A DNA stretch of 54,020 bases from Pseudorhodoferax soli (lineage in GTDB: Bacteria > Pseudomonadota > Gammaproteobacteria > Burkholderiales > Burkholderiaceae_C), in the NCBI RefSeq assembly GCF_003337555.1, contig NZ_QPJK01000003.1:1-54020 (forward strand). The letters run 5' to 3'. Below the pieces are notes generated by a model that worked only from the letters and a program-made list of their open reading frames with translations, was not told where the DNA came from and searched no databases. The position numbers and the translations under genes are program-made. Positions 5,144 through 24,224 of this stretch are shown here, piece by piece (position 1 is the stretch's first letter; every line of letters starts with the position of its first letter).

Positions 5144-5368
5144 AGACTTGCTCCTGGTGCGAATCGGTGTCCGGCAAATCGCCGTCGCTGAAGAGCGGCC
5201 GCTTGCCTCCAAGCATCTTCCCGCGCCGACCCATTGGCTTTGCCGCATCACGGTTTCGCGATGAACGACCTCTGCCGCGGATGGGCGCCCTTGCAAGCCG
5301 CCCTCACGGTGGGAACCTGAAGTGCGGGCCGACATGGGGTCGGGCACCGCCTGATATCAGGAGTGACC

Positions 5369-7420
5369 ATGAAACTGTCCAAAGCGGAGTTCGAGGCCCT
5401 CATCGAGGCCTCACAGCGCACCTTCGTTTCCTTCTGTCAGCTCGTGCTGTCGGTCGACTACCAAGCGCGGAGTTCTGGCAGCGGGCCCAGGCTCAGCATC
5501 CCCGAACTCGCCGCGTCCATCAAGGAGTGTGGTGTGCTGCAGAACCTCATCGTGGTTCAAGCAGCCCGTCACACCTACGAGGTCTGCGCCGGAGGGCGAC
5601 GACTTGAGGCGCTGACAGCGCTGGTCGCAGCTGGCGAGCTGCCAGAGAACTTCCCGGTTCCGGTACTGATCGTCGCGGTGGATCGCGGCCTGCTAGTCAG
5701 CCTTGCCGAAAACGCATTCCATCTGCCCATGCATCCCGCTGACGAGTTCGAAGCTTTCGCAAAGCTCGTGGCGCGCGGCAAACCGGTCGAGGATGTCGCG
5801 GCTGCGTTTGGCGTCACGCCCATGGTGGTCAAGCGCCGCATGAAGCTTGCGGCCGTATCGCCGCGGCTGATGGCGCAGTTCCGCGAGGGCAGCATCAACC
5901 TGGAGTGTCTGATGGTGCTGGCTTCGGTGGAGGACCACGAGCGACAGGAGCAGGCGTGGGCCGGACTGGATTCCTGGAATCGACATTCCGATCACCTGCG
6001 CCGCATCCTCACCCAGGGCGAGGTCGACTCCGACCGCAGCCCGGTTGCCAGATACGTCACCGTCAAAGCATACGAGAAGGCCGGCGGTCCCACGCGGCGA
6101 GACCTGTTGAGCGACAGCGACAGGAAGGTCTACCTGCTGGACGCGGCGCTCCTCGACCAACTGGCCGTTGGCAAGCTGCAGGGCACGGCCAACAAGATCG
6201 CCGCCGAAGGCTGGAAGTGGGTGGATGTACGCCCGCGGTACGTCCACGACGAATACGTTCGCCACGGCGAGTTGCGCAAGTCGTCCCGCGAGCCCAGCGA
6301 GCAAGAAGCGGCCGCTCTGCACGCCCTGAACGTGCAGCTGGAGGAGAACAAGCAGCGCTTGAATGCGCTCTACGCGCAAGATGGCAGCGACGAGGAGACA
6401 GAGGCGGAGTGCGCGCGCCTGGAGGCTCTCCGCGAGGAGCTGTCCGGCCAGGTGGCTGCGTTGGAGGAAGTCCTGGCTATCTGGCCGCCCGAGCTGATGG
6501 CGGAGGCCGGCTGCATCGTCTATGTCGGCAACGATGCCAAGCCAGCGGTCCGGTATGGCCTGATCCGACCCGATGACCGGTCCAATGTGCTGCAGGCCAA
6601 CCGAGGCGGAGTCTTTGGCGGGGCCGCGAGCCGGTCCGGGCTGGCGGCCGTCCCAGAGCCGAAGACCCGTCCGGTGCACTCGGAGAAGCTCGTGCGCAAT
6701 CTGACCGCACACCGGGTGGCCGCCATCCAGGCGGAACTGCTCGACCGCTCCGATGTGGCCCTGGCAGTGCTGACCGCCCAGATGGCGAAGTCGCTGCTTC
6801 TGGACGACTACCGTCAAGCCTACGGCTGCGAGGACCCGTTGAAGCTGACTGTGACCGACACGCATCACAGTCTGCGTGCCGACGCGCTAGACATCGAGGC
6901 CAGCAAGGCCTGGCAAATTCTGAACGCCAAGCGGAGCTACTGGCAGTCCATTCTTCCGCCCCAAGCTGCAGACATGCTCCCGTGGGTGCTGACCCAGGAG
7001 CCGGACAGCGTCCGGCAACTCTTCACCTTTCTCGTGGCCATCACCGTCACCGGTGTCTACGCAACCGAGCCTGCTCAGCAGCGCACCGATGGGCTGGCCC
7101 AGGCGCTAAGACTGGACATGACGCACTGGTGGCAGGCGAGCGGCCCCTCGTACTTCCAGCATGTGTCCAAAGCACGCGCGACCGAGGTCGTCAGCGAAGC
7201 TACAGGCGCTCCGGCCGGTACGGCGATGCAGGCTCTCAAGAAGGAAGCAGCGGTCGCGCGTGCCGCGCAAGCAGTGGCTGGAACGGGCTGGTTGCCTACG
7301 GTCCTGCGCCTGCGCCCGCCTGCCGATGTGCCAGACGCTGATGTTGCATTGGGACCGGACGACGACCCGCCGCTCGACGTCGGTGAATCGGACGGTGACA
7401 CGGAGACGGCCGGCAACTGA
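5369..7420 (+). CDS. Large ParB/RepB/Spo0J-family DNA-binding protein
   Basis: A 683-residue protein with an N-terminal ParB nuclease-like domain. SIPELAASIKECGVLQNLIV is the opening ParB signature, followed by CAGGRRLEALTAL and LAENAFHLPMHPADEFEAF. Next is a helix-turn-helix of ParB type (about residues 130-165, VAAAFGVTPMVVKRRMKLAAVSPRLM). The remaining 450 residues include a charged coiled-coil-like stretch (about 300-375), a tail region of unknown fold and an acidic C-terminus. It is about twice the length of chromosomal ParB and resembles large ParB-like proteins of plasmids and integrative elements. The ATG at 5369 has GGAG five bases upstream. No ParA lies nearby. The gene is convergent with the recombinase gene. 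Confidence 0.85.
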   Translation: MKLSKAEFEALIEASQRTFVSFCQLVLSVDYQARSSGSGPRLSIPELAASIKECGVLQNLIVVQAARHTYEVCAGGRRLEALTALVAAGELPENFPVPVLIVAVDRGLLVSLAENAFHLPMHPADEFEAFAKLVARGKPVEDVAAAFGVTPMVVKRRMKLAAVSPRLMAQFREGSINLECLMVLASVEDHERQEQAWAGLDSWNRHSDHLRRILTQGEVDSDRSPVARYVTVKAYEKAGGPTRRDLLSDSDRKVYLLDAALLDQLAVGKLQGTANKIAAEGWKWVDVRPRYVHDEYVRHGELRKSSREPSEQEAAALHALNVQLEENKQRLNALYAQDGSDEETEAECARLEALREELSGQVAALEEVLAIWPPELMAEAGCIVYVGNDAKPAVRYGLIRPDDRSNVLQANRGGVFGGAASRSGLAAVPEPKTRPVHSEKLVRNLTAHRVAAIQAELLDRSDVALAVLTAQMAKSLLLDDYRQAYGCEDPLKLTVTDTHHSLRADALDIEASKAWQILNAKRSYWQSILPPQAADMLPWVLTQEPDSVRQLFTFLVAITVTGVYATEPAQQRTDGLAQALRLDMTHWWQASGPSYFQHVSKARATEVVSEATGAPAGTAMQALKKEAAVARAAQAVAGTGWLPTVLRLRPPADVPDADVALGPDDDPPLDVGESDGDTETAGN

Positions 7421-7533
7421 ACCGCCCCGCAGAGTGCAGCCTGCGTGGCGACATCGGAACTTCAGGGGCGGCTTACCGAGCATCGCGGCCCATGAACTCC
7501 AGCGCCGCGAGCGTCGGCGGCGCAGGCACATTG

Positions 7534-8739
7534 CTATGAGGAAACTGGGCTCCTGTTGCTGGCGGTCTCTGCCAGAAAGGAAGTAGCGACGTTCTCGGCA
7601 CACGATGCCTTGCGCTGCCCGGCAACGCGCTCAGACCCGATGTACGCCGCGGCAGCACGCCTACGGGCGTGCCCGGCCATCTCAGCGATCTCCTGGCGAG
7701 CGGCGTCCCCAGTATCCACGGGCGGCCGCTCACCGTGGCGCACGGGTGGCTCCGTCCCGGTTTGTCTTCGCCAAACATCGACCAGAGCCTCATGCCGAAG
7801 CCCGTGCCCGGTTGCGCCTCGCTCCGCGAGCGACAGGCCGAACGCGCGAAGCATGTAGCTGAAGTGGTTCAGGTTCTGCTTGAGGTCGTGGCTGGGATCG
7901 CTCAGATGCGCGTCGGCCGTGGCAGCGACTTGCTGCGCGAAGGCCAGGGCATCACGTTGCATCTGCGTCTCGATTGCCACGAAGCGGGGCCTGCCGCCCT
8001 TGCTGCCCTGGCGGACCCAAAGGTATTGGTCAGCCTTCTTGCGTTCCCTCGGCAAGCCCGTGGCCTCGAATGGCACGACGCAGGCATGCGGGCGCATCAT
8101 CACCGCTTCCTTGCGACGTAGCCCGAATGCCCGGATCAAGCGCAGTGCAGCGCCCACATGCCTATCCTTGGCACAGAATTGTTCGATCAGCGGGTCGATG
8201 TCGATTCCTGAACCGGTCCAGCTCCGGTCGCGCTGCGCGACCTCGTGTCGTTGGTACTGGGACGGGGCGAGCCCATAGGCCGCTGGCTGCAGGACCATGC
8301 CCGGCTTGCCGATCCACTGGGCCAAGCCGCGCAGGAAGCTCAGGTAGGTCTGGATGGTCGCCGCTGCCAACTGGTCCTTGCGCCACAGATCGACGGTCGC
8401 CTGGATGTGCCTTCCGCCCAGGTTGCGAGGGTCTGGCAGGGTTGCAAAGCCTGCCCTGCTGCGCAGGTCCTTCAGGAACCGCCTGAGGTAGACCGCGCGA
8501 TCGTGCCGCGTCTTGTGCGAGACGGTCTTCTGCTTTGCTGTGTGCTGCTCGTTGAACAGCTCCAGCAGTATCTCCAGGATCTTCTCCGGCGAAGCGGACC
8601 CGGGAGGATGGCGCTGGAGCACATCCACGGCACTCAGGCCCGCCCACGCCGCGCGGCGCTGGGCGGGCCTCCCGTGCAAGGATGAGGGACTGGCGGCGGT
8701 GCGGTTCGGTCTGGTCTGCGGTGTGGTAGCAACTTGCAT
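7534..8739 (-). CDS. Tyrosine recombinase / phage-type integrase
   Basis: A 401-residue recombinase. An N-terminal SAM-like core-binding domain (about residues 50-170; KTRHDRAVYLRRFLKDL and TIQTYLSFLRGLAQWIGKPGMV) precedes the catalytic domain. Visible catalytic residues are Arg in AFGLRRKEAVMMRP, the HxxR box in GHGLRHEALVDVW, His in MAGHARRRAAAAY and the terminal Tyr in AAAAYIGSE. It resembles Integrase_1-type proteins of mobile islands and plasmids more than P4 integrases. The ATG at 8739 has GGAG seven bases upstream, which favours it over longer frames. Its partners are likely the adjacent ParB-like and ParM-like genes. Confidence 0.85.
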   Translation of the reverse strand: MQVATTPQTRPNRTAASPSSLHGRPAQRRAAWAGLSAVDVLQRHPPGSASPEKILEILLELFNEQHTAKQKTVSHKTRHDRAVYLRRFLKDLRSRAGFATLPDPRNLGGRHIQATVDLWRKDQLAAATIQTYLSFLRGLAQWIGKPGMVLQPAAYGLAPSQYQRHEVAQRDRSWTGSGIDIDPLIEQFCAKDRHVGAALRLIRAFGLRRKEAVMMRPHACVVPFEATGLPRERKKADQYLWVRQGSKGGRPRFVAIETQMQRDALAFAQQVAATADAHLSDPSHDLKQNLNHFSYMLRAFGLSLAERGATGHGLRHEALVDVWRRQTGTEPPVRHGERPPVDTGDAARQEIAEMAGHARRRAAAAYIGSERVAGQRKASCAENVATSFLAETASNRSPVSS

Positions 8740-9956
8740 GGTTGTCTCCAGGACGGATTGCGCGCATGCGCATGCCTTCGATAGACGGATGGAATCCCTT
8801 TGCTTGCTCGCTCGCGGAGCCGGCTGACTCCGAAGACGGCTCCCAACGGCCTGCCTGCTGGCTGTCGTGCGTGGCCGCAACGCACGAGCGCTGTCCCGGG
8901 TTCAGTTGCCACGTCGCCGCGGCAACTCGGTCGTTCTTAAAAATGAAACCGTTTGATCCGACCTGTGGGCACGTTTCCGCGCCGTACAGGGGAGTGCGCC
9001 TCGACCTTGGAGGTCTGTGCGCGGCGCTTCGGTCCGGCCGAAGCACCTCTGCAGGATCAGTGCTGGATTCGTAGCTCCACCCATCTGCCGGGTAGCTCCC
9101 CTGACCGTGGCCAGGGAGCGTCAGATGTCCGAGCGATGGCATGCGTGGAGCCCATCAGGGCAAACACGGCCGCATGCCGCGCAAAGCGCGCTCGAAAGGG
9201 TGAAGGGAACACTGGCATGGGCATCAAGTGCCCTGCAACTGGCTCTGCTTGCACTGCGTGCGACCTGGAGGATCGCCCAGCCGTGTAGGGCTGGAAGGCG
9301 CAGGCATCCCCTACGAAGAACTCTCCGGAGTACTGCTCGATGGCAGTGCTCACCACGGCTCGAGGCCGAGACTCGAAGGGCGGGTAACGACCGCGACGCC
9401 TGATTGGGCTCCACCGATGGGAGCCAAGGCCAGGAGCCTTTGGGAGGCTTGAGTGGACTGCACCAGGGCATAGGGCGTCAAGACGCTTGCGGGTGTTTTG
9501 GTGTGGCGGCGCAGCGTTGCTGCACGATCGCTCTATGCCTCATCCCCTTGCTTGGCTACCATGCCTGAGAGGGATTTGACAGCTGACCGATTGGCCTCTG
9601 GTTGCGAATGCGACCTGGACGGGCCCGTTCTGGAACCGGGCGGAACTTCCTGGTCTGATCGGTGCAATCGAAGCCATGTTGAAGCAGCTGGCGAAGCGCA
9701 CGGTTGTCCCTGGCGAAAATTGAAGGGTTCTTGAACCAGTGCATCGCTGACCCGCGTCTTGTGCCAGGAAGGCTGCGCCAGGATGTCTCTCGGTCTGCAG
9801 CGCCGCGTGGCCCGAGTCGGCCCTTACAGCTGCGGCCTCTGGCACACCTTCTGACCTGATCCCGAAATGGCAGCCAACTTGGATGGCGTTCGCCGTTGCA
9901 TCGCTCAGCGCCGTCACGGACTCTCTCCACACCAGGTCCTGGTTAAGGAGATTGCC
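8740..9956. other. Long stretch with only weak coding signals
   Basis: About 1.2 kb upstream of both the recombinase and the ParM-like gene. A 92-codon frame at 9125-9403 is listed separately. A 46-residue open stretch near 9586-9723 (WPLVANATWTGPFWNRAELPG) reads like a gene fragment but has no start. Otherwise I see no gene. The region could hold promoters or a site for the flanking recombinase. Confidence 0.4.
9125..9403 (+). CDS. Small hypothetical protein (doubtful)
   Basis: A 92-residue Arg-rich frame. It starts with an ATG preceded by AGGGAGCGTCAG, a plausible ribosome binding site, and contains a hydrophobic stretch (TLAWASSALQLALLALRATW, about residues 29-48). I recognise no family. 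The high Arg content could equally reflect a non-coding frame in GC-rich DNA. It lies in the gap upstream of the ParM-like gene on the same strand. Confidence 0.2.
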   Translation: MSERWHAWSPSGQTRPHAAQSALERVKGTLAWASSALQLALLALRATWRIAQPCRAGRRRHPLRRTLRSTARWQCSPRLEAETRRAGNDRDA

Positions 9957-10982
9957 GTGAACATGGTCGTCAGATCCATCGATGTGGGCTTCGGCAACAC
10001 GAAGTTCGTGGTGGGGCATTCGGACAAAGACATCAAGTGCGCGTGCTTCCCCTCACTGGCCTACACGAGCGCGAAGGATCCGTCCGTCCGGCCTTCGGCA
10101 GAACGTCGCAGGACCGTGGCCGTACCGATCGACGGCCTGTACTACGAGGTCGGGCCGGACGTCCATCTGGCGGCGGACAACTTCCGGGCGACCCAACTGC
10201 ATGACCAATATGTCGAGACCCCCGAATACCTGGCGCTGGCCCGTGGGGCGCTGAGCTACATGAAGGTCGATGTGATCGATCTGCTGATGGTCGGGCTGCC
10301 GGTCTCGTCGTTCCAGGCCCGCAAAGGATTCCTGGAGCGGCTGATGACGGGCGTGCACGCGCTCGGCGGCGGCAAGACGGTCGAGGTGAGGAGGGCGGTC
10401 GCACTCGCACAGCCACAAGGCGCGCTCGTGTACTACACGGCCGCGTACCACAAGCAACGGACCATCGAGCATGAGCAGAGCCTCATCGTCGATCCGGGTT
10501 CGCGCACTTTCGACTGGCTGCTGTCGCGCGGCATGCGGCTGGTCCTGAAGGTGAGCAACTCCGTGAACAGAGGAATGTCCGACGTGCTCAAGACCATCGC
10601 GCAGGAGATCAGCAGCGAGATCGGACGGCCCTACAGCGACCTGCCTGCGATCGACACGGCACTGCGGACCGGCAAGCCGCTGCTGATCTACCAGAAGCCG
10701 TTCGACCTCACGCCCATCCTGCCAACCGCACGGGCCGTCGCACGCGGGGCTGTCTCCTCGATGATGGAGTGGGTCACCGAGGACTACAGCATCCAGAACG
10801 TCATCCTCGTCGGTGGAGGCGCGTTCATGTTCAAGGATGCCATCAAGGCCGCGTTCCCGAACCACAAGATCCAGGTGGTCCGGGAGCCCATGCATGCGAA
10901 CGTGAAAGGCTTCCAGATTGCTGGAAGCAACCTGATGGAAGCCGAATCTCAGGAAAGCCGCCGCGATGCTGCGCGGCAGTGA
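9957..10982 (+). CDS. ParM/StbA-family actin-like segregation protein
   Basis: A 341-residue actin-fold ATPase that would polymerise to separate DNA copies. Motifs in order are phosphate-1 DVGFGNTKF (about residue 9), the central LMVGLPVSSFQARK, phosphate-2 VDPGSRTFDWL and the adenosine motif LVGGGAFMF near residue 285. It resembles the PRTRC-protein-D/StbA branch found on plasmids and integrative elements. The GTG at 9957 is chosen because AAGGAG lies six bases upstream; the ATG at 9963 is too far from it. Its end overlaps the next gene by 17 bases, suggesting coupled translation of a two-gene segregation unit. Confidence 0.88.
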   Translation: MNMVVRSIDVGFGNTKFVVGHSDKDIKCACFPSLAYTSAKDPSVRPSAERRRTVAVPIDGLYYEVGPDVHLAADNFRATQLHDQYVETPEYLALARGALSYMKVDVIDLLMVGLPVSSFQARKGFLERLMTGVHALGGGKTVEVRRAVALAQPQGALVYYTAAYHKQRTIEHEQSLIVDPGSRTFDWLLSRGMRLVLKVSNSVNRGMSDVLKTIAQEISSEIGRPYSDLPAIDTALRTGKPLLIYQKPFDLTPILPTARAVARGAVSSMMEWVTEDYSIQNVILVGGGAFMFKDAIKAAFPNHKIQVVREPMHANVKGFQIAGSNLMEAESQESRRDAARQ

Positions 10983-15740: not shown

Positions 15741-16295
15741 TTACGTCGCCGGCTTCACGGCCTCGACCGCTGGCAGTTTCGGAAATCTGCAAGCGATCGA
15801 CAGTTCATTGACTGCAACGATGCGCTGCGAGTTGTTTTTTGCAGCGCTGTACGCTGTCGTCGCTTCCTTGATTTCTGCACGCGTCGATTCGTACACGATT
15901 CCAAGTTGTGAACCGGAAACGCCATTCTGCTGCAAAGTGTACTGTGCGGCATTGGCCGCACCCGAAACGCCACCCCATGCAGCAATCGCCGATTTGGCAG
16001 CTGCTCCAGCGGCCAACGCAGGGACCACGATCGAACCCGCAATGATCCCAACCGTGGCAATGGTGATTTGAGCCCGTCCAGATCCAAAAAATGAATCTCG
16101 AAGCCCGGTCATGTTGGAATCACACAAGGCCAACGCGCTTTGAAAATCTTCATCCAGAGCTTCTTTGGCAGTCGTCGAGGCTTCAGAGGCTTTCTTGTCC
16201 GCCTCCAATGCAGAATAGTTGGCCGTAGGCGCTTTCATGGTTGAGCAACCGGAGAGAGCTAACGTCACTAGCAGCGCGCAAGTGATTGACCTCAT
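15741..16295 (-). CDS. Putative outer-membrane lipoprotein with glycine-zipper-like segment
   Basis: A 184-residue protein. The lipoprotein signal is MRSITCALLVTLALSGC with the lipobox Cys at position 17. A polar helical region follows (about 25-75), then a hydrophobic Ala/Gly-rich stretch (about 78-110; TVGIIAGSIVVPALAAGAAA) resembling a glycine zipper, then a mixed C-terminal half. The ATG at 16295 is chosen because GGAGGAG lies immediately upstream; longer frames lack this. It lies downstream of the wall amidase on the same strand, 162 bases away, so a shared role or an effector-protector relation is possible. No family is recognised. Confidence 0.7.
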   Translation of the reverse strand: MRSITCALLVTLALSGCSTMKAPTANYSALEADKKASEASTTAKEALDEDFQSALALCDSNMTGLRDSFFGSGRAQITIATVGIIAGSIVVPALAAGAAAKSAIAAWGGVSGAANAAQYTLQQNGVSGSQLGIVYESTRAEIKEATTAYSAAKNNSQRIVAVNELSIACRFPKLPAVEAVKPAT

Positions 16296-16457
16296 GATTC
16301 TCCTCCCAAGATTTGGCTGACCCGTGGTGATGCTAAAACCGAAAAAATCAGGAATCATCAATTCTGCAATTGAGGTCCTGGTGGACACATGCATCTCTCA
16401 AGCCCCACTACCCGATGCACGTTGAGCAGGCTGCGGCAGGTTCAAGTACTAGATCCA

Positions 16458-17177
16458 TCAGCCAGGAGGGTTTGGCCAGTCAACCCCTAGCTTCTTAGCG
16501 GTTGCCGGCCCGACCACACCATCCGATACCAACTTCGAAGACATCTGGAACGCCTCCACTGCGGCCACCGTGTGAGGACCGTATTCACCGTCGATTTTCC
16601 CGGGGTCAAAGCCAGCATTCTTCAGCGCGCGCTGGACTTTTCTTACAAGCGGGCTTGCAGTGTTCGGATCTTCCAATATGAGCATGAAGGGCAAGGTCAC
16701 CTCTGCAGCCACGTGACCCGTGCTGGCATATTGCAACTCAGGGACCTTGACCACAAAATCCCACAGTCTCCCGCGCACTTTTCCTGGCCTGACTCCCAAA
16801 CCGGTCCCTGCAGCCTCGACTGTCTTGCCCAATCCGTCTGAGACAGCGACATGCCCCATCTTTCCTGGCGCCGGAGGCCTGCGGATCAATATCACACCGG
16901 GTGTGTTGACCGCGTCATCTTCGGACGAACTGGTGAGAACGCCGGACCTTGCGTCGCGAACCCAAGAACCGGAATAAGCTTCGGCAACGGCAGGATTAGA
17001 CTCGTTATCTATGCAGCCATAAAGCCTCTTCGTTTTCTGAAACACGAGCCATGAAACAAACTCCGCGCAATCCCATGGACCATGCCAGTTTGCGTTGTCT
17101 TTCGGAACACGAATGTTGACGTATTTTTCGCCAATTCTTGTCTTGGCCAAAGCTACCAATTCAGCCCCAGTTGCCAT
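16458..17177 (-). CDS. NlpC/P60-like cysteine amidase with peptidoglycan-binding domain
   Basis: A 239-residue two-domain protein. The N-terminal papain-like domain (about 1-150) has candidate catalytic Cys37 in GPWDCAEFVSW, the NlpC/P60-like DCxxF context, and His109 in KMGHVAVSDG. The C-terminal domain (about 170-237) is a PG_binding_1 repeat: VRKVQRALKNAGFDPGKIDG.YGPHTVAAVEAFQ, ending DGVVGPATAKKLG. No signal peptide is seen, which is unusual for a wall hydrolase and recalls endolysins or injected effectors. The ATG at 17177 has GAGGAG upstream. The downstream lipoprotein gene is on the same strand. Confidence 0.8.
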   Translation of the reverse strand: MATGAELVALAKTRIGEKYVNIRVPKDNANWHGPWDCAEFVSWLVFQKTKRLYGCIDNESNPAVAEAYSGSWVRDARSGVLTSSSEDDAVNTPGVILIRRPPAPGKMGHVAVSDGLGKTVEAAGTGLGVRPGKVRGRLWDFVVKVPELQYASTGHVAAEVTLPFMLILEDPNTASPLVRKVQRALKNAGFDPGKIDGEYGPHTVAAVEAFQMSSKLVSDGVVGPATAKKLGVDWPNPPG

Positions 17178-18351
17178 TGTGTGTCTCCTCTTTAGGAACA
17201 AGGATTGTGATGTAAATCACGAGTTTTTGGGAGATTTACATTTTCTTACCTCTGCTTTAGTCATGGACGCAGGAATGTTGAAAGCGCTGTGGCATTGATC
17301 ATGATCTTGTGGATGGATGAGGTGCGAGGCGCAAGTAGTTTTAGCGCTGCGCCCGCTAGCGGTCAGCTATGCCGCCCAAAGCGGTCAGTTCGATCGCAGG
17401 TCGATCGACTGCAACGGGTGCCCGCGCCACTTTGACCCCTCGGCAGCAGTCGTTAAACCGCCGTTTTTTTTCGCGGTCGAGCGACCAAGACTAGGACGTC
17501 CGCAGGCCACTCCAGTGCGGTCGTTCGGGCCAAGCGAGCTTCAGGGGCTTCAGCGACCGCAAACTGGCGCAGACCGTTCGCTCGCCGTCTTGGAAGCAAC
17601 GGCGGCAATAGACTGGCTGCTGACCTTGAACTTTAATCGTTGAGTGACCGCCGCGCGCGAAACCCGCCATTCGCAATCTACTTGCGCGTCGGTCCGCTGT
17701 ACCGCCGACACCGGTCTGTCAGAGCCGACCATCGACTCAACCCCGGCGAGCGCCTGCACTCGGCAGGGGTGGATTGGCGCTCTGCGCCCGTTGCTGCCGG
17801 TCGCCGTGCTTGCGGCGACGTAAGCTCTGCAGCATTGCCGCCGCTGGCGCCGAAAAGGTCAGCGCGCGGTCTGGGCCAAGTTGCTGCCGACAGGCTCCCC
17901 CTGCTTGCATTGCTGGGCGACCGAACTTAGCCGGGTTTCTGACATTGCGGCCGCTGTCGCTCGATCAAGCAGCGTCGGCGCGTGCAATGACTGTTGCCCC
18001 ATCTGCAAACTGGTGCTCCGCATCCGTCGGCGCGCCGTGCCCTGAAGACCCGAAAGGCAGCTGTACGACAGTTGCCGTTCGTCGCCCGTACTTCCCCTGC
18101 AGTGATACCTTTTGCCAGTGGCCGACTATTGTTACGGTATGGAGCGGCTCGGACGAGCGTTCGTGTCCAAAGCTTCGGTATTGAGATGCCGCGTTTGATT
18201 CACGACCGTGCTGGATGTGGTCTCTCAGCACGGCTGGCGCCAAACAACGTGTGAGGGCCTGCACCCAAGGCGCAGACATTAAACAATTCTGATGATGACG
18301 GCTGGTTGACTTCGGTGCTATACCCCAATGCATTGATTGGGAGAAGAGACT
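17178..18351. other. Non-coding region rich in diverged intergenic repeats
   Basis: About 1.2 kb with no convincing gene. Short motifs recur with a CGGTC core (GCGGTCAG, GCGGTCGTTCG, GACCGC). The part at 17640-17735 is homologous, in inverted orientation, to 24380-24480. The region looks like a cluster of dispersed chromosomal repeats of the type seen between genes in Burkholderiales. Promoters for the diverging amidase and hydrolase genes must lie at its two ends. Confidence 0.5.
17640..17735 (+). repeat. Inverted repeat copy A flanking the caspase locus
   Basis: Aligned by eye with the reverse complement of 24380-24480. TGACCGCCGCGCGCGA is exact, followed by one mismatch and ACCCGCC. GCGCGTCGGTCCGCTGTA is also exact, followed by diverged CACCGGTC and GACCAT blocks. 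Similarity is roughly 80 percent over about 95 bases. Confidence 0.75.
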
Positions 18352-19206
18352 ATGCGCTCATTCGTCGTCATTGCCTGGTTCGCCGTCTGCCTGTTGCTGA
18401 GCGTCGCAGAGCACGCCAGCGCTGCGCCAAAAGTCTTCAACGACTACGTACTGAAGGCCGTAGATCATCTGGCCCGGACCCGATCCGGCCTGGGCTACGC
18501 CAACGCCGCCTACACTCGCAACCTCGATTTCGGCGGCGAACCGCTTCGCGCGACGCGGCCGCCGGTCTCGATGTGCGTCGCCGCGCAAATTGAAATCATC
18601 GTCGAAGCCCTAAACATGTACGCGGCCGAAACGGGCGACCAGTCTGTGTACAGGTTTCTGCCAGTTTTCCAGTGGCGTTCTTTGCGCTCCAGGAGCTTCA
18701 GAGGAATGGTCTGGATCTCGGATAACAAGGCGTCGCGAGGAACGGGCCATGCACTGAACACATTCGGCATGGGTACAGAGAGGGAGTTCGAGAATCTCAT
18801 CCCGGGCGACTTCGTCAACCTCAACCGCCTCAAAAACAAGAGCGGCCACGCAGTCGTGTTCCTTGGCTACATCGACAGGGCTGGCGTAGTACTACCTCAG
18901 TACGGCAGCAACGTTGTCGGCTTTAAATACTTCTCGTCCCAGGGCTCGCTCCAGAAAGGCGGCTTCGGATACCGGAACGCGTACTTTGACAATGTCTATT
19001 GCCCGACGAACGAGGGACCCATACTGCGCGACTGCGGAGTCGCTCGCAGTCGGACGTACCTGACTGCCGGTCAGATGTTTCACCCCCACGACTGGGATAA
19101 ATCGGCTCGCGACAAGGCAATCGCTCTCGAACGCAAGAGTCCCAAGGGTCCGGTGCCGCCGTTCGATTTCAAGTTCTTCAACGGCGTAACGACAGACATG
19201 GAATAG
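18352..19206 (+). CDS. Secreted papain-fold-like (NlpC/P60-type) hydrolase
   Basis: A 284-residue exported protein with a signal peptide at about 1-24 (ending EHASAA). The candidate nucleophile is Cys75 in PPVSMCVAAQIEIIVEALN, at the start of a long helix as in NlpC/P60 and CHAP enzymes. The candidate general base is His166 in SGHAVVFLGYID, followed by a polar strand (LPQYGSN). No binding domain is attached; the last 60 residues are Lys/Pro-rich. The ATG at 18352 follows GGGAGAAGAG. Only 8 bases separate its stop from the start of the WD40-caspase gene, so the two are almost certainly one operon. The family name is inference; the Cys/His arrangement is what is seen. Confidence 0.65.
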   Translation: MRSFVVIAWFAVCLLLSVAEHASAAPKVFNDYVLKAVDHLARTRSGLGYANAAYTRNLDFGGEPLRATRPPVSMCVAAQIEIIVEALNMYAAETGDQSVYRFLPVFQWRSLRSRSFRGMVWISDNKASRGTGHALNTFGMGTEREFENLIPGDFVNLNRLKNKSGHAVVFLGYIDRAGVVLPQYGSNVVGFKYFSSQGSLQKGGFGYRNAYFDNVYCPTNEGPILRDCGVARSRTYLTAGQMFHPHDWDKSARDKAIALERKSPKGPVPPFDFKFFNGVTTDME

Positions 19207-19214
19207 GTGGCCGC

Positions 19215-22200
19215 ATGATTCGGATCCTCGCTCGAATCGCGCTGATCTGTCTTGCGGCCTCGTCGTCAGTCGCAGCGCAGACCAAGGAGTCGGATATCAA
19301 GCTTTCCGCCTTGATCGGGCATAGTGGCTCCGTCATTGGGCTGAGCTATGCGCCCAGCCAGAAGTGGCTGCTCTCGCACAGCTACGACGGCACCGCGCGA
19401 CTGTGGGAAGTTGCTTCCGGCCGTGAAGTACGCCAGTTCACCGCGTTTCCGGACGGTGTCAGCGTCGCCCGATTCAGCCATGACGGAACAGGGGTGTTCA
19501 CCGGCGGACACAGCGGTCAACTGCAGCTGTGGAATGTGGAAAGCGGCCATGAAATCGGCCGCTTCATTGGACATACCGCGCCGATCCAGTCGATAGCGAC
19601 TTCACGCGGCGGCAAGCTCGTTGCGACCGGGGCAGGCCCAGTTCCTGCCGACAAGATCATCGATCCGACCGTTCGCGTCTGGGCGATCGCATCCGGTCAG
19701 CCGCTCGTCAAGTTCGAAGGCCACACATCGTCCGTCAGGTCCGTTCTGTTCTCGGCGGACGACAGTTCGGTGCTGAGCGCGTCATCCGACGGAACTGTCC
19801 GACGCTGGGACATCGCCTCGGGCAGGCAAGTCGCCATCGCATCGTTCGCCACCGCCGACATCAGCGGATTGACACTTTCGAGTGACGGAAGGTGGGCCAT
19901 TGCCGGCTTTGAAGGAAGCGGAACGCGCTCTCTGGTCGTTCTCGACGCGACGACACTCGCCGAGCGACGTTCGTTGGGCTCCAGGCCGATCAACGCCTTC
20001 GCGCTGGCGCCCAACGGTTCGCGGGTCGCTGCCGCCTACCGGAGCGGGGAAGTGGACGTCTGGGATACCGAGACCGGAAAGCTGTTAAGCACCCTTGCCA
20101 AGGTGGGCGACCAGCGTTCGCCACGCTCCCTGGCATGGTCTCCGGACGGTTCCGTCCTGCAAATCGGATTCGACAGCGGCAGTATCCTGAGTGCCGACGT
20201 CTCGACAGCGCTCGTTCGACGCTTTTTCGGAGGCAGGGCCGAAGGCGTGACGGGCATCGCGCTGTCCAAGGACGGCCGCATACTCGCGGCCGCGCTGGGC
20301 GGCAAGCGCGTCGCAATCTGGGACCTGGAGAGCGGGCGCCAGACGCGTTCCTTCCTATCCGGGCCCGATGTGGTGGCTTCTATCGCAATGGCCAGCGATG
20401 GCAGCCTGCTCGCCACCGGCTCCGGCATCACCGACCCAAGCCAGCGCGCGGGAATTGCGGACAACTCGCTTCGCCTGTGGTCCGCAACAGACGGTCGGCT
20501 GCTCGCCACGATGGCCGGCCATCTGGATGCCATCGTCGACGTCCATTTCCTGGAAGACGGAAAGCGCTTGGCCACTGCCAGCGCTGATGGGACGGCAAGG
20601 CTGTGGAATATCGAACGCAAGAGCGAGATCGCGCGCTTCGGGTCCAGCGGGGAGAAATTCTTGGCGGTCGCCCTTTCCCCAGACGAGGACTACCTGGCCG
20701 CAGCGACGGAATCGAATGCTGCGCTCGTCTGGAGCGTTAAGACCGGGCAGCTATTAGCCAAACTTCAGGGACCGTCGTCGTTCTTAAATAGGTACGGAGG
20801 ATCAGTACGTATCCAGATGGCTGCCTTGAAGTTTTCCCACGACGGGAAAAAGCTCTTCACCGCCAGCCACGACGGGATTCTGCGGGAGTGGTCGTGGGCC
20901 GATAGGCAGTTGCTCTTGGGGCATAGCACCGGCTCTGCCACGTTCGCTTTCGCGTTGGCCCCCGATGGCAACACTCTGGTCACTGCGGGGGAGCAGCCAG
21001 TGATTCAGCTCAGCAAGGCCGACGTCGCGGCGGGCGCGCGCATGCTGGTAGGCCATGACGCGCCTATTCTTCACCTAGCCGCCACCGAGAAGCGCATCGT
21101 GTCCGCGAGTTCCGACTGCACCATCCGCGTCTGGGACGCAGCCTCCGGGGCCGAGCTGATCAAGCTCATCTCGTTCCGAAGTGGCGGATGGGCCGCGATC
21201 GACCCGGAGGGGAACTTCGACGAACCCAACGCCGGCAATGGCTCGGACCTGTACTGGGTCGCCGGTCTCCAGACGCTGGATCTCGCCAGATTCAAGGAGC
21301 GCTTCTATCGTCCCGGGCTAATCGCTCAGCGCTTCGCGAGCGGCGCACCGGCGCAGGCCGCGGCCGCTGTGCTTCGGAAGGTCGCGCTGGGTCCGGAGGT
21401 CTCCGTTTCGGCAGGGCGATCGACGTTCGACGACGCGCGCCTGTCCATCGTGGACCAAGGTGGCGGCGTCGGGACGCTGCGGGTCAAGGTCGACGGGAAA
21501 CTCGTGCTCGACAAGGTTGCCCTAACTCGAACGCCCTCCAGTCATACCTATCTTCTTACGACGAAGTCGCTGGCGAAGTGGCTCGATCCCAGTTCGCCTA
21601 GTACCGTGACGGTGGACGCCTTCAATGCGGACGGCTCGCTGTCCGGCCCTGTCACAAAACTGGAGATGTCGATCGCTAGGCCGTTCTCTGCATCTACCAA
21701 GCCGAGGCTCTGGGTCTTGGCCATCGGGATCTCCGAGTACGTGGGATCCGACGGCGCATTCGATCTTCAGTTCGCCGCAAATGACGCCAGTGACATGGCG
21801 AGCTCCATCTTTCTTGGCGGAGAAGCGCTGTTCGGAAAGGGCCAAGTCGACGTTCAGCTGATCGCGTCTGGAAAAGCGCCCGCGTCGCGGCCGACGAAGA
21901 CCCGCATCCGGACGGCCTTCGATCGACTTCAGGCAGCGAAGTCGAACGACGTCGTCGTCGTCTACTTCTCGGGGCACGGCCTCAGTTATCACGACGAGTA
22001 CTACTTTCCGACGGAAGAAGTCAACAGCCTTGACATCAGCGACGCGGCCGTGCGTCAGGCGAGAACGATAAGCGGCGAGGAGATCGGCAAGTGGATGGCC
22101 ACGCCCGCACGAAAGCAGGCGGTGATTTTCGACACGTGCGCAGCGGGCGCGGTCGGTCGGCGACTAGTACGCCCGAAGAGCGCAACCCCCGATATCGTTC

Positions 22201-22877
22201 GCGCGCTGGACCGCATGCGTGACCGTGCCGGGCTCTACGTCCTGATGGGATCGGCCAGCGACAAGGAGAGCTACGAGGCCTCGCCCTTCGAACGCGGCCT
22301 GCTGACGCACGCCCTTCTGGAAGGTCTGCGCGGGGCAGCGACGTTCAGGGACGACAAGTTCGTCGCGGTCTCTTCGCTGTTCGATTTCGCGAAGGAACAG
22401 GTCCAGGACCTGGCGCCGGAGATCGAGAGCGTGCAAATACCTTTCGTATTCGCGCCAAACGAGAAATCAGAAAGCTTCGACATCGCGGCGCTCGACAGTT
22501 CCCTACGGAGCCGCATCCCGTTCCATTCCAAGAAGGCGGTACTTGTGCGGCCCATGATGCTGAACATGGACACGAAGGCGGATGATCTGGCGCTCACACC
22601 TAAGCTGACTCAGGCCCTCAGGGAAGGCGCGAGAGGCGACAGCATCGGCAACGCTCCCTACGTCTTCTACGACGTCGCACAGATTCGGGGTGGAGTGTCG
22701 GCGAGCGGCTTCTACACGTCGGCGAATGGGAGATTGGCCCTTTCCGTCGTCGTGCGAGGAGACAAGGCGCAGCAGAATCTGACTGCCACCTGTCCGTCGG
22801 CGGATCCGGCAGCGTGCGTACGCGACGCGGCAAAGTCCATCGGCAAGGCAGCACCGGCCCTAGCATCGTTGCGATAG
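19215..22877 (+). CDS. Exported WD40-repeat caspase-fold (peptidase C14) fusion protein
   Basis: A 1220-residue protein. The signal peptide is at 1-21 (ends SSVAAQ). About 14 WD40 repeats follow, to residue ~660 (first GHSGSVIGLSYAP...DGTARLWEVASG, last GHDAPILHLA...CTIRVWDAASG), enough for two seven-bladed propellers. A linker GGWAAIDPEGNFD and KERFYRPGL lead to a beta-rich region (about 700-825). The caspase domain then runs from ~830 (RLWVLAIGISEYV) to ~1075, with catalytic His921 in YFSGHG and Cys975 in IFDTCAAGA, both intact. The last 145 residues are unassigned. WD40-caspase fusions are known in multicellular and soil bacteria, and an exported one beside a secreted Cys hydrolase is notable. 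Length and reading frame are uninterrupted. Confidence 0.92.
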   Translation: MIRILARIALICLAASSSVAAQTKESDIKLSALIGHSGSVIGLSYAPSQKWLLSHSYDGTARLWEVASGREVRQFTAFPDGVSVARFSHDGTGVFTGGHSGQLQLWNVESGHEIGRFIGHTAPIQSIATSRGGKLVATGAGPVPADKIIDPTVRVWAIASGQPLVKFEGHTSSVRSVLFSADDSSVLSASSDGTVRRWDIASGRQVAIASFATADISGLTLSSDGRWAIAGFEGSGTRSLVVLDATTLAERRSLGSRPINAFALAPNGSRVAAAYRSGEVDVWDTETGKLLSTLAKVGDQRSPRSLAWSPDGSVLQIGFDSGSILSADVSTALVRRFFGGRAEGVTGIALSKDGRILAAALGGKRVAIWDLESGRQTRSFLSGPDVVASIAMASDGSLLATGSGITDPSQRAGIADNSLRLWSATDGRLLATMAGHLDAIVDVHFLEDGKRLATASADGTARLWNIERKSEIARFGSSGEKFLAVALSPDEDYLAAATESNAALVWSVKTGQLLAKLQGPSSFLNRYGGSVRIQMAALKFSHDGKKLFTASHDGILREWSWADRQLLLGHSTGSATFAFALAPDGNTLVTAGEQPVIQLSKADVAAGARMLVGHDAPILHLAATEKRIVSASSDCTIRVWDAASGAELIKLISFRSGGWAAIDPEGNFDEPNAGNGSDLYWVAGLQTLDLARFKERFYRPGLIAQRFASGAPAQAAAAVLRKVALGPEVSVSAGRSTFDDARLSIVDQGGGVGTLRVKVDGKLVLDKVALTRTPSSHTYLLTTKSLAKWLDPSSPSTVTVDAFNADGSLSGPVTKLEMSIARPFSASTKPRLWVLAIGISEYVGSDGAFDLQFAANDASDMASSIFLGGEALFGKGQVDVQLIASGKAPASRPTKTRIRTAFDRLQAAKSNDVVVVYFSGHGLSYHDEYYFPTEEVNSLDISDAAVRQARTISGEEIGKWMATPARKQAVIFDTCAAGAVGRRLVRPKSATPDIVRALDRMRDRAGLYVLMGSASDKESYEASPFERGLLTHALLEGLRGAATFRDDKFVAVSSLFDFAKEQVQDLAPEIESVQIPFVFAPNEKSESFDIAALDSSLRSRIPFHSKKAVLVRPMMLNMDTKADDLALTPKLTQALREGARGDSIGNAPYVFYDVAQIRGGVSASGFYTSANGRLALSVVVRGDKAQQNLTATCPSADPAACVRDAAKSIGKAAPALASLR

Positions 22878-23444: not shown

Positions 23445-24224
23445 ATGTCCATAGACCTCAGGCAGTTCGTCCTCTACCTCTGTGTGGCCATCTGCCCGTG
23501 CGCTGCGCTCGCATGGGATCCGATAGGCGACCTTCAGAATCCCGGCCGGATTCTCCGCAATGTCGAACGAGAAGTTGGAAATGCCGGTCAGGCAGTTGAT
23601 CGAGCCCGCCTTGAAGGACAAGCTCAAGCTGGGGCACCGGCCTTTCAGGGCTGGCTTCAGGAGTCAAGGAACACTGCCCGGAATGGTGGCACATCACCTA
23701 TACCTGACCATATTCGAGGTCAGGTATCTGGCTTCTTTGACGAAGGACTTCTGCACAGTGTTCGCTATAAGGTTGGAGATGCAGGAATTTTCAATCTGGC
23801 AAATCTATCGATCCAATATGGCGGTGCGGGAGCTGTCACGCTGATTGACACTATCGTTTTTAAGAATTCGGCGGATGCCGAGAACAACGTTGTCTTGTGG
23901 GTTCACGAGTTGAAGCATGTACAACAGTTCCGAAACTGGGGTACCCGGGATTTCACGATACGGTACCTACGGAGCTGGAATGGGGTGGAGGGTGAGGCCT
24001 ACGCCGCCCAGGACCAGTACATTCAATGGCGAAACAGCCAGAGTGCGGCATCCCCTCCACTGGCGCCGAGGTACGCTAGTCCACAAGTTGCCTTTCCGCG
24101 CCCGGTCGGGGCAACTGCATGTACAACGTCTTACGGTGCGTGCCCCATGGGCATTGCGATTGCGGCTGGATCTCCCTGCTATTGCCCTTCGATGTACGGC
24201 CCCGTTTGGGGGATCGCACGATAG
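23445..24224 (+). CDS. Secreted HExxH metallopeptidase-like protein
   Basis: A 259-residue exported protein with a signal peptide at about 1-23 (ending CAALA). The zinc-binding motif is HELKH at 154-158 in LWVHELKHVQQFRNWG, followed by a downstream acidic candidate third ligand in VEGEAYAAQ (Glu182 or Glu184). The HELxHVxQ pattern recalls the DUF4157 / eCIS-core metallopeptidase-like family. Upstream of it, a strand-rich region (LSIQYGGAGAVTLIDTIVF) fits that fold. The C-terminal 60 residues are Pro-, Gly- and Cys-rich (four Cys). AGGAGG precedes the start. The function and target are unknown. It lies in the group of exported hydrolases but is separated from the caspase operon by an IS30 remnant. 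Confidence 0.75.
   Translation: MSIDLRQFVLYLCVAICPCAALAWDPIGDLQNPGRILRNVEREVGNAGQAVDRARLEGQAQAGAPAFQGWLQESRNTARNGGTSPIPDHIRGQVSGFFDEGLLHSVRYKVGDAGIFNLANLSIQYGGAGAVTLIDTIVFKNSADAENNVVLWVHELKHVQQFRNWGTRDFTIRYLRSWNGVEGEAYAAQDQYIQWRNSQSAASPPLAPRYASPQVAFPRPVGATACTTSYGACPMGIAIAAGSPCYCPSMYGPVWGIAR

What the first reader, a model, noticed from the sequence alone, without database searches (positions are those of the whole stretch)
18352..22877. Two-gene operon: secreted papain-like hydrolase plus exported WD40-caspase
The genes are 8 bases apart and both carry signal peptides. The second has 14 WD40 repeats (enough for two propellers) and an intact His921/Cys975 caspase pair. Most bacterial caspase-fold proteins act inside the cell in defence or signalling. 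An exported one would act in the periplasm or outside, possibly activating or cleaving the small Cys hydrolase encoded with it. I know of no described system with this pairing.
Basis: partly seen in the sequence, partly recalled or inferred. Interest (0 to 1): 0.75.

Follow-up and report, generated by a model that had tools for sequence, protein, structure and literature searches.

The report
Exported caspase with wall-enzyme-like partner
A rare exported enzyme that resembles bacterial cell-wall cutters is encoded directly in front of an exported caspase-type protease in several distantly related bacteria, with three different styles of caspase, which suggests that the two proteins work together outside the cytoplasm.

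Summary
In detail: two genes 8 bases apart, both with signal peptides by sequence; gene B has 14 WD40 repeats and His921/Cys975, gene A has Cys75/His166. Six gene A loci were found. In five of six an exported caspase gene starts 1-10 bases downstream (window, two Rhizobium, G293, G1069); in the sixth (Bdellovibrionales MAG, contig beginning inside gene A) the next gene is convergent and no caspase. The partner is a WD40-caspase, a caspase with a long tail, or a compact caspase, so the link follows the caspase and not one architecture. Gene A matches no Pfam family; profile comparison places it nearest NlpC/P60 wall peptidases. Exported caspases in general were not seen beside wall hydrolases, so the pair is specific; some rhizobial replicons, however, fuse a caspase-like domain to a GH25 lysozyme. 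Most likely reading: a mobile pair in which the caspase controls, or acts with, a wall-cutting enzyme. Cleavage of A by B is inferred, not shown.

The parts
18339..18348 (+). Shine-Dalgarno-like GGGAGAAGAG before gene A
   Evidence: sequence read
18352..19206 (+). gene A: exported orphan Cys hydrolase, 284 aa, NlpC/P60-like
   Evidence: ORF; homologues and invariant residues; hhalign
18352..18423 (+). signal peptide of gene A (residues 1-24, by eye)
   Evidence: sequence; the three relatives with a complete N-terminus and the N-terminal piece in L200 start with a similar stretch
18574..18576 (+). codon of Cys75, proposed nucleophile
   Evidence: invariant in 5 of 5; aligns with the NlpC Cys only in the low-threshold alignment
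18847..18849 (+). codon of His166, proposed catalytic His
   Evidence: invariant in 5 of 5; aligns with the NlpC His
19000..19035 (+). Cys217 and Cys228 of gene A, possible disulfide
   Evidence: both invariant in 5 of 5; disulfide is inference
19215..22877 (+). gene B: exported WD40-caspase, 1220 aa
19215..19277 (+). signal peptide of gene B (residues 1-21)
   Evidence: heuristic, score 3.69
19302..21155 (+). 14 WD40 repeats (residues 30-647), enough for two seven-bladed propellers
21711..22439 (+). caspase (Peptidase_C14) domain
21975..21977 (+). codon of His921
22137..22139 (+). codon of Cys975, preceded by Asp973 (D-T-C)
23445..24224 (+). eCIS_core (DUF4157)-like predicted metallopeptidase with a signal-peptide-like start, 567 bases downstream; neighbour, not shown to belong
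   Evidence: 33.9 bits, cut-off 22; start read by eye
16458..17201 (-). CHAP-like plus PG_binding_1 protein on the other strand; neighbour, not shown to belong
   Evidence: CHAP 21.6 bits, below its cut-off of 26; PG_binding_1 63.4, cut-off 23

Best explanation
A rare, horizontally moving two-gene module. Read from sequence: gene A is a Cys/His protein with a signal peptide and remote similarity to NlpC/P60 peptidoglycan peptidases, and it is followed at once by an exported caspase whose architecture differs between lineages. Inferred: both act in the periplasm or outside; the caspase, predicted to cut after Arg/Lys because of the D-x-C motif, trims or activates gene A (or a partner that holds it in check); active gene A then cuts peptidoglycan, in the producer (autolysis) or in neighbours. 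In the window protein the two WD40 propellers would be the docking or sensing part; the Rhizobium, G293 and G1069 caspases do without them.
For: Pairing 1-10 bases apart in 5 of 6 gene A loci: window, R. lusitanum plasmid (the record's own annotation starts this caspase later, at 10145), Rhizobium sp. ASV8, G293, G1069. Three caspase architectures: caspase regions of window and rhizobial-type partners are 18-23% identical, and the G1069 caspase has no tblastn match from the L018, L022 or window caspase at E 1e-3. The window's genome has only 3 caspase matches, so adjacency by chance is unlikely. Gene A v. NlpC/P60: hhalign probability 59.6, E 8.9e-5, against 0.1 for CHAP and 0.1 for caspases; score 34.6 v. 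at most 20.8 in 60 column shuffles. Conserved Cys217/Cys228 fit an oxidising compartment. Caspase-like domain fused to GH25 lysozyme in L018, L020, L035 and L041: a second physical link of a caspase to wall hydrolysis. Mobility: partition, integrase and IS genes beside the window pair, a plasmid in R. lusitanum, a 49% GC islet in a 70% GC surrounding in G1069.
Against: Few loci (6), two of them close Rhizobium relatives, so about four independent cases. The Bdellovibrionales homologue has no caspase downstream. In G1069 gene A is split over two frames. No Pfam family matches gene A, and the NlpC match is below 60% probability with the Cys placed only at a low threshold. The AlphaFold model of gene A is poor (pLDDT 45.7) and Foldseek gives no match at E 0.001. 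Wall hydrolases were not seen as repeated neighbours of exported caspases in general. No cleavage site in gene A was demonstrated.
Confidence: 0.45

Rival explanations
1. Two exported hydrolases that act side by side on the same outside target (wall peptides and wall proteins of competitors or prey) without one cutting the other.
For: Tight linkage and export signals of both; one rhizobial plasmid cluster holds several exported hydrolases together (L035, by eye).
Against: Does not by itself explain why the partner is a caspase in all five paired loci and not some other protease.
Confidence: 0.25
2. Gene A is papain-fold but its substrate is not peptidoglycan (a protein, peptide or lipid amide, possibly of a plant or protist host).
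For: The confident part of the profile match covers only 33 columns around the His; no Pfam family; one carrier is a root-nodule isolate.
Against: Of the three profiles tried, only the NlpC/P60 wall peptidases match; CHAP and caspase profiles give nothing.
Confidence: 0.15
3. The caspase is the brake: it destroys misplaced or excess gene A to protect the producer.
For: Same tight linkage as a toxin-immunity pair.
Against: A protease is an unusual immunity protein (recalled); nothing tested bears on it directly.
Confidence: 0.1
4. Chance neighbours or relics with no joint function.
For: Only six loci; one is split over two frames and one lacks a caspase downstream.
Against: Immediate adjacency in about four lineages with three unlike caspase types.
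Confidence: 0.04

Closest known systems
Exported prokaryotic caspase homologues (metacaspases/orthocaspases) with WD40 repeats
   Same: C14 domain, His/Cys dyad, WD40 repeats, N-terminal export signal (PMC3501461 passages)
   Different: Nothing in the passages read describes the gene A partner
NlpC/P60 peptidoglycan endopeptidases (PF00877)
   Same: Cys and His in the same order, similar PGD..V and GH motifs
   Different: No Pfam match; longer spacing between Cys and His; extra conserved C-terminal half
Caspase-amidase fusions and the Geobacter caspase operon with an amidase (PMC3501461, passages)
   Same: Caspase tied to wall hydrolysis
   Different: There Amidase_2 or N-acetylmuramoyl-L-alanine amidase; here a separate orphan Cys protein
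Rhizobial proteins with a caspase-like domain and a GH25 lysozyme (L018, L020, L035, L041)
   Same: Caspase linked to wall hydrolysis, in L018 and L020 a few kb from gene A
   Different: Fusion with a lysozyme; no gene A relative found in L035; L041 was not compared with gene A by profile
EACC1-type defence caspases
   Same: Same caspase superfamily
   Different: Below the NCBIfam cut-off (59.4 v. 140 bits); has a signal peptide; effector-associated domains were not searched for specifically

Membership tests
Peptidase C14 (caspase), PF00656 | Pfam match over the curated cut-off | tested here: met
   48.2 bits v. 21.4
Peptidase C14 (caspase), PF00656 | His/Cys dyad | tested here: met
   His921, Cys975; His and Cys kept in the L018, L020 and L022 partners and readable in the G1069 partner
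Metacaspase/orthocaspase specificity for Arg/Lys | Acidic residue two before the Cys (role of the motif recalled, from no call) | tested here: met
   D-T-C in the window, D-A-C and D-S-C in partners, D-A-C in G1069; activity itself untested
EACC1-type caspase (NF047832) | Score over the curated cut-off | tested here: not met
   59.4 v. 140 bits
NlpC/P60 (PF00877) | Pfam match | tested here: not met
   0 families for the window protein at E up to 10; among 5 members 2 other families at E 0.053 and 0.19, no NLPC_P60
NlpC/P60 (PF00877) | Profile similarity with Cys and His aligned | tested here: inconclusive
   hhalign 59.6%, E 8.9e-5; above 60 of 60 column shuffles; Cys aligned only at the low threshold
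NlpC/P60 (PF00877) | Peptidoglycan cleavage | not testable with these tools
   needs enzyme assay
CHAP (PF05257) | Profile similarity | tested here: inconclusive
   hhalign probability 0.1 against a small profile of 7 CHAP sequences, although that profile does find NlpC/P60 at 95.4
Papain-like fold | Fold match of a predicted structure | tested here: inconclusive
Type VI amidase effectors | No Sec signal peptide (recalled) | tested here: not met
   gene A starts with a signal peptide by sequence; T6SS genes in the genome were not searched for

The most novel reading that the evidence does not exclude
A mobile, exported caspase-to-lysin cascade: caspases of any architecture that reach the periplasm serve as the switch for one dedicated wall-cutting zymogen, a bacterial counterpart of executioner activation that works outside the cytoplasm.
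Probability: 0.25. Interest if true: 0.85.

Novelty: new variant of a known kind. Interest (0 to 1): 0.57.

Why it matters
The natural substrates of exported bacterial caspases are, as far as I recall, largely unknown. A dedicated gene that keeps the same place in front of three unlike caspases names a candidate substrate and makes the question testable with two purified proteins. If cleavage switches on a wall enzyme, it would give prokaryotic caspases a concrete role in lysis.

Tried and rejected
General link 'exported caspases sit next to wall hydrolases': tested on operon-like neighbours of the 92 exported caspases that the gene caller kept in 120 sampled loci (66 neighbours, 64 distinct; 63 scanned, L106:18362-19997 left out because it runs to the end of its locus). 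No wall-hydrolase family is among the 25 families shown of 101 (OmpA 4, autotransporter 3); families found in one member and not shown cannot be excluded. A control set of 64 distant genes was drawn but not scanned, nor were the 23 distinct neighbours of the other 34 caspases. Rejected as a general rule.

Phage origin of gene A: no match in 50,697 phage records, no relative in the pattern scans of viral contigs. PHROGs: 1 of 5 members matched one family at E 0.23. Solved structures: best E 0.21 and 0.52. Foldseek: no match at E 0.001; in the second look papain-like wall enzymes (CwlO, PlyGRCS, RipD, PlyPy) and procathepsin K stand among unrelated small barrels, too weak to use. The model of mature gene B from a single sequence is useless (pLDDT 33.2), so the propellers rest on sequence alone.

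The CHAP/PG_binding_1 gene, the lipoprotein-like gene and the eCIS_core gene beside the pair have no tblastn relative in L018, L020, L021 or L022 (L200 came later and was not compared), so they are treated as neighbours only. The third rhizobial gene and the rhizobial lipoprotein have no relative in the window.

Literature: the listings (titles and starts of abstracts) showed no paper on this pair; they list 20 of 39, 20 of 65, 10 of 34, 1 of 1, 15 of 941, 0 and 0 papers, and the library holds open-licence papers only. PMC3501461 and PMC6426788 were seen as passages, PMC7159879 only in a listing.

Full report
What is there. Gene A (18352-19206, 284 aa) and gene B (19215-22877, 1220 aa) lie on the + strand, 8 bases apart; gene A has a good ribosome-binding site. 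Codon positions show a bias expected of genes (G+C at positions 1/2/3: A 0.57/0.44/0.74, B 0.62/0.52/0.75). Gene B holds 14 WD40 repeats between residues 30 and 647 (11 strong, 3 weak), a Peptidase_C14 domain at 21711-22439, His921 and Cys975. Gene A has Cys75 and His166. Both start with a signal peptide by eye; gene B also passes the rough test.

Host and setting. The listed best DNA matches of window 1-25000 in plasmids are short pieces from Acidovorax, Variovorax, Comamonas, Cupriavidus and Piscinibacter, so I take it for a member of the Burkholderiales (inference). Upstream in the window lie a ParB-like gene, a tyrosine integrase and an actin-like partition gene and an IS3 element 87.7% identical to one on an Acidovorax plasmid. 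G+C is 57-64% at 15-25 kb and 67-73% beyond 35 kb. This looks like mobile cargo.

Distribution of gene A. It is rare: 1 of 100 relatives, that is the window genome alone; 2 of 398 genomes of the phylum (window and G293); 1 of 21 and 1 of 397 around G293 (G293 itself both times); 2 of 385 in the class of G293 (G293 and G1069); 1 of 72,556 plasmid records, the same one with two queries; 0 of 50,697 phage records; 2 loci in the pattern-limited scan of genome contigs. Distinct loci in all: window, L018 (R. lusitanum plasmid, 85.8 kb), L020 (Rhizobium sp. ASV8), L021 (Bdellovibrionales MAG), L022 (G293) and L200 (G1069). The window protein is 40-43% identical to the four aligned relatives.

The pairing. 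In L018 gene A ends at 9882 and the caspase frame has its first ATG at 9884 with a signal peptide behind it (score 4.52); the record's annotation starts that gene later, at 10145. In L020 the corresponding start is at 10894, after a stop ending at 10891. In L022 the gap is 3 bases. In L200 gene A is spread over two frames (frameshift or sequencing error, described only), and a 307-aa caspase with a signal-peptide-like start begins 10 bases further on. In L021 the contig begins inside gene A and the next gene is convergent and no caspase. So the pairing holds in 5 of 6 loci, or 5 of 5 without L021, in about four lineages.

Three kinds of partner. The window partner is a WD40-caspase. L018, L020 and L022 carry a caspase domain soon after the signal peptide and a long tail (L018 v. 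L022: 37.6% identical over nearly the whole length). L200 carries a compact caspase with a DACR motif; neither the L018, the L022 nor the window caspase finds it by tblastn at E 1e-3, while the caspase profile does (E 1.5e-35). The window and rhizobial-type caspase regions are 18-23% identical. The constant is therefore 'an exported caspase', which is hard to explain without a joint function.

What gene A may be. No Pfam, NCBIfam or PADLOC family matches the window protein. Against a profile of 11 NlpC/P60 domains from relatives, hhalign gives 59.6%, E 8.9e-5 for a single comparison, over 33 columns of the PGD.V...GH segment that carries the catalytic His. Sixty column-shuffled NlpC profiles scored at most 20.8 against 34.6; at a low threshold the alignment extends so that Cys75 meets the NlpC Cys, but with low confidence. 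A small CHAP profile and a caspase profile give 0.1%; the CHAP profile itself finds NlpC/P60 at 95.4%. The three-sequence AlphaFold model is poor but shows a helix after the Cys and strands after the His. I conclude that gene A probably works like an NlpC/P60 enzyme; membership is not established.

Exported caspases are ordinary. I fetched 80 places in the window's order and 40 in the order of G293, chosen from the listed matches, and added 15 loci already in hand. With a home-made signal-peptide test 116 of 164 caspase ORFs are positive, against 26.5% of 2,291 ORFs of at least 200 aa, a baseline that includes spurious ORFs. Of seven loci with WD40-caspase relatives of gene B from the same order (L024-L030), 5 are positive. 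PMC3501461 (passages) had reported WD40 in 73 sequences (10.9%), likely signal peptides, four caspase-amidase fusions, and the idea of a role on the cell surface or in fratricide.

Is the link to wall enzymes general? Not for exported caspases at large, as far as tested: among 63 operon-like neighbours the commonest families are OmpA (4) and autotransporter (3), and no wall hydrolase is among the 25 families shown of 101. It does recur in Rhizobiaceae. L018, L020, L035 and L041 encode a protein with a caspase-like part before a GH25 lysozyme: the caspase-like part matches my caspase profile weakly in L018, L020 and L035 (E 2e-5, 3e-5, 7e-9), GH25 was shown by Pfam for L018, and all four are related along most of their length. 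All four have a second GH25 gene beside them. L037 has an annotated lysozyme between caspase genes, and a divergent 1229-aa WD40-caspase related to gene B at 23.4%. The nine regions were picked for reading and are not a count; L033 and L034, also read, show caspases with no annotated wall enzyme nearby.

Mechanism. Read from sequence: linkage, export signals, intact dyads, remote NlpC similarity. Inferred from family knowledge: cleavage after Arg/Lys by the caspase (D-x-C motif, recalled), peptidoglycan as target of gene A. Pure inference: that the caspase switches gene A on. The alternatives (parallel action, a brake, a non-wall substrate) remain open and are listed.

Verdict. Observation confirmed; interpretation partly supported; a specific, recurrent pair of a known protease class with a partner that I found described nowhere in the listings searched.

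Noticed in passing
23445-24224: eCIS_core/DUF4157-like predicted metallopeptidase with a signal-peptide-like start and a Cys-rich tail; relatives of about 39-45% identity in 15 plasmid records (10 Rhizobium, 3 Klebsiella, 1 Pseudomonas, 1 Rhodobacter).
   Followed up: partly
16458-17201 and 15741-16394, minus strand: CHAP-like/PG_binding_1 protein without an obvious signal peptide, next to a lipoprotein-like gene; no relatives in L018, L020, L021 or L022.
   Followed up: partly
L018:13699-15522, L020:14515-16737, L035:8674-10605, L041:7695-9542: Caspase-like domain fused to a GH25 lysozyme, each next to a second GH25 gene, on three Rhizobiaceae plasmids and in a Rhizobium sp. ASV8 contig.
   Followed up: partly
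L037:1-8026: R. leguminosarum plasmid cluster: annotated lysozyme between caspase genes, with a divergent 1229-aa exported WD40-caspase.
   Followed up: partly
L035:1500-4868: Metallopeptidase-like and trypsin-like proteins with signal-peptide-like starts and a beta-propeller-like protein beside the caspase-GH25 genes (by eye).
   Followed up: no
L024:6946-11609: Exported WD40-caspase followed at once by a TIR-like protein (by eye).
   Followed up: no
L121:5950-6987: A 271-aa caspase without a signal peptide lies directly beside a stretch matching the window's PG_binding_1 protein (32% over 69 residues, opposite strand).
   Followed up: no
5363-10982: ParB-like gene, tyrosine integrase and actin-like partition gene upstream of the pair: integrated plasmid or similar element.
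   Followed up: partly
L021:832-2484: Protein convergent with the Bdellovibrionales gene A, with a signal-peptide-like stretch and Cys and GHVAVV motifs of a papain-like enzyme (by eye).
   Followed up: no
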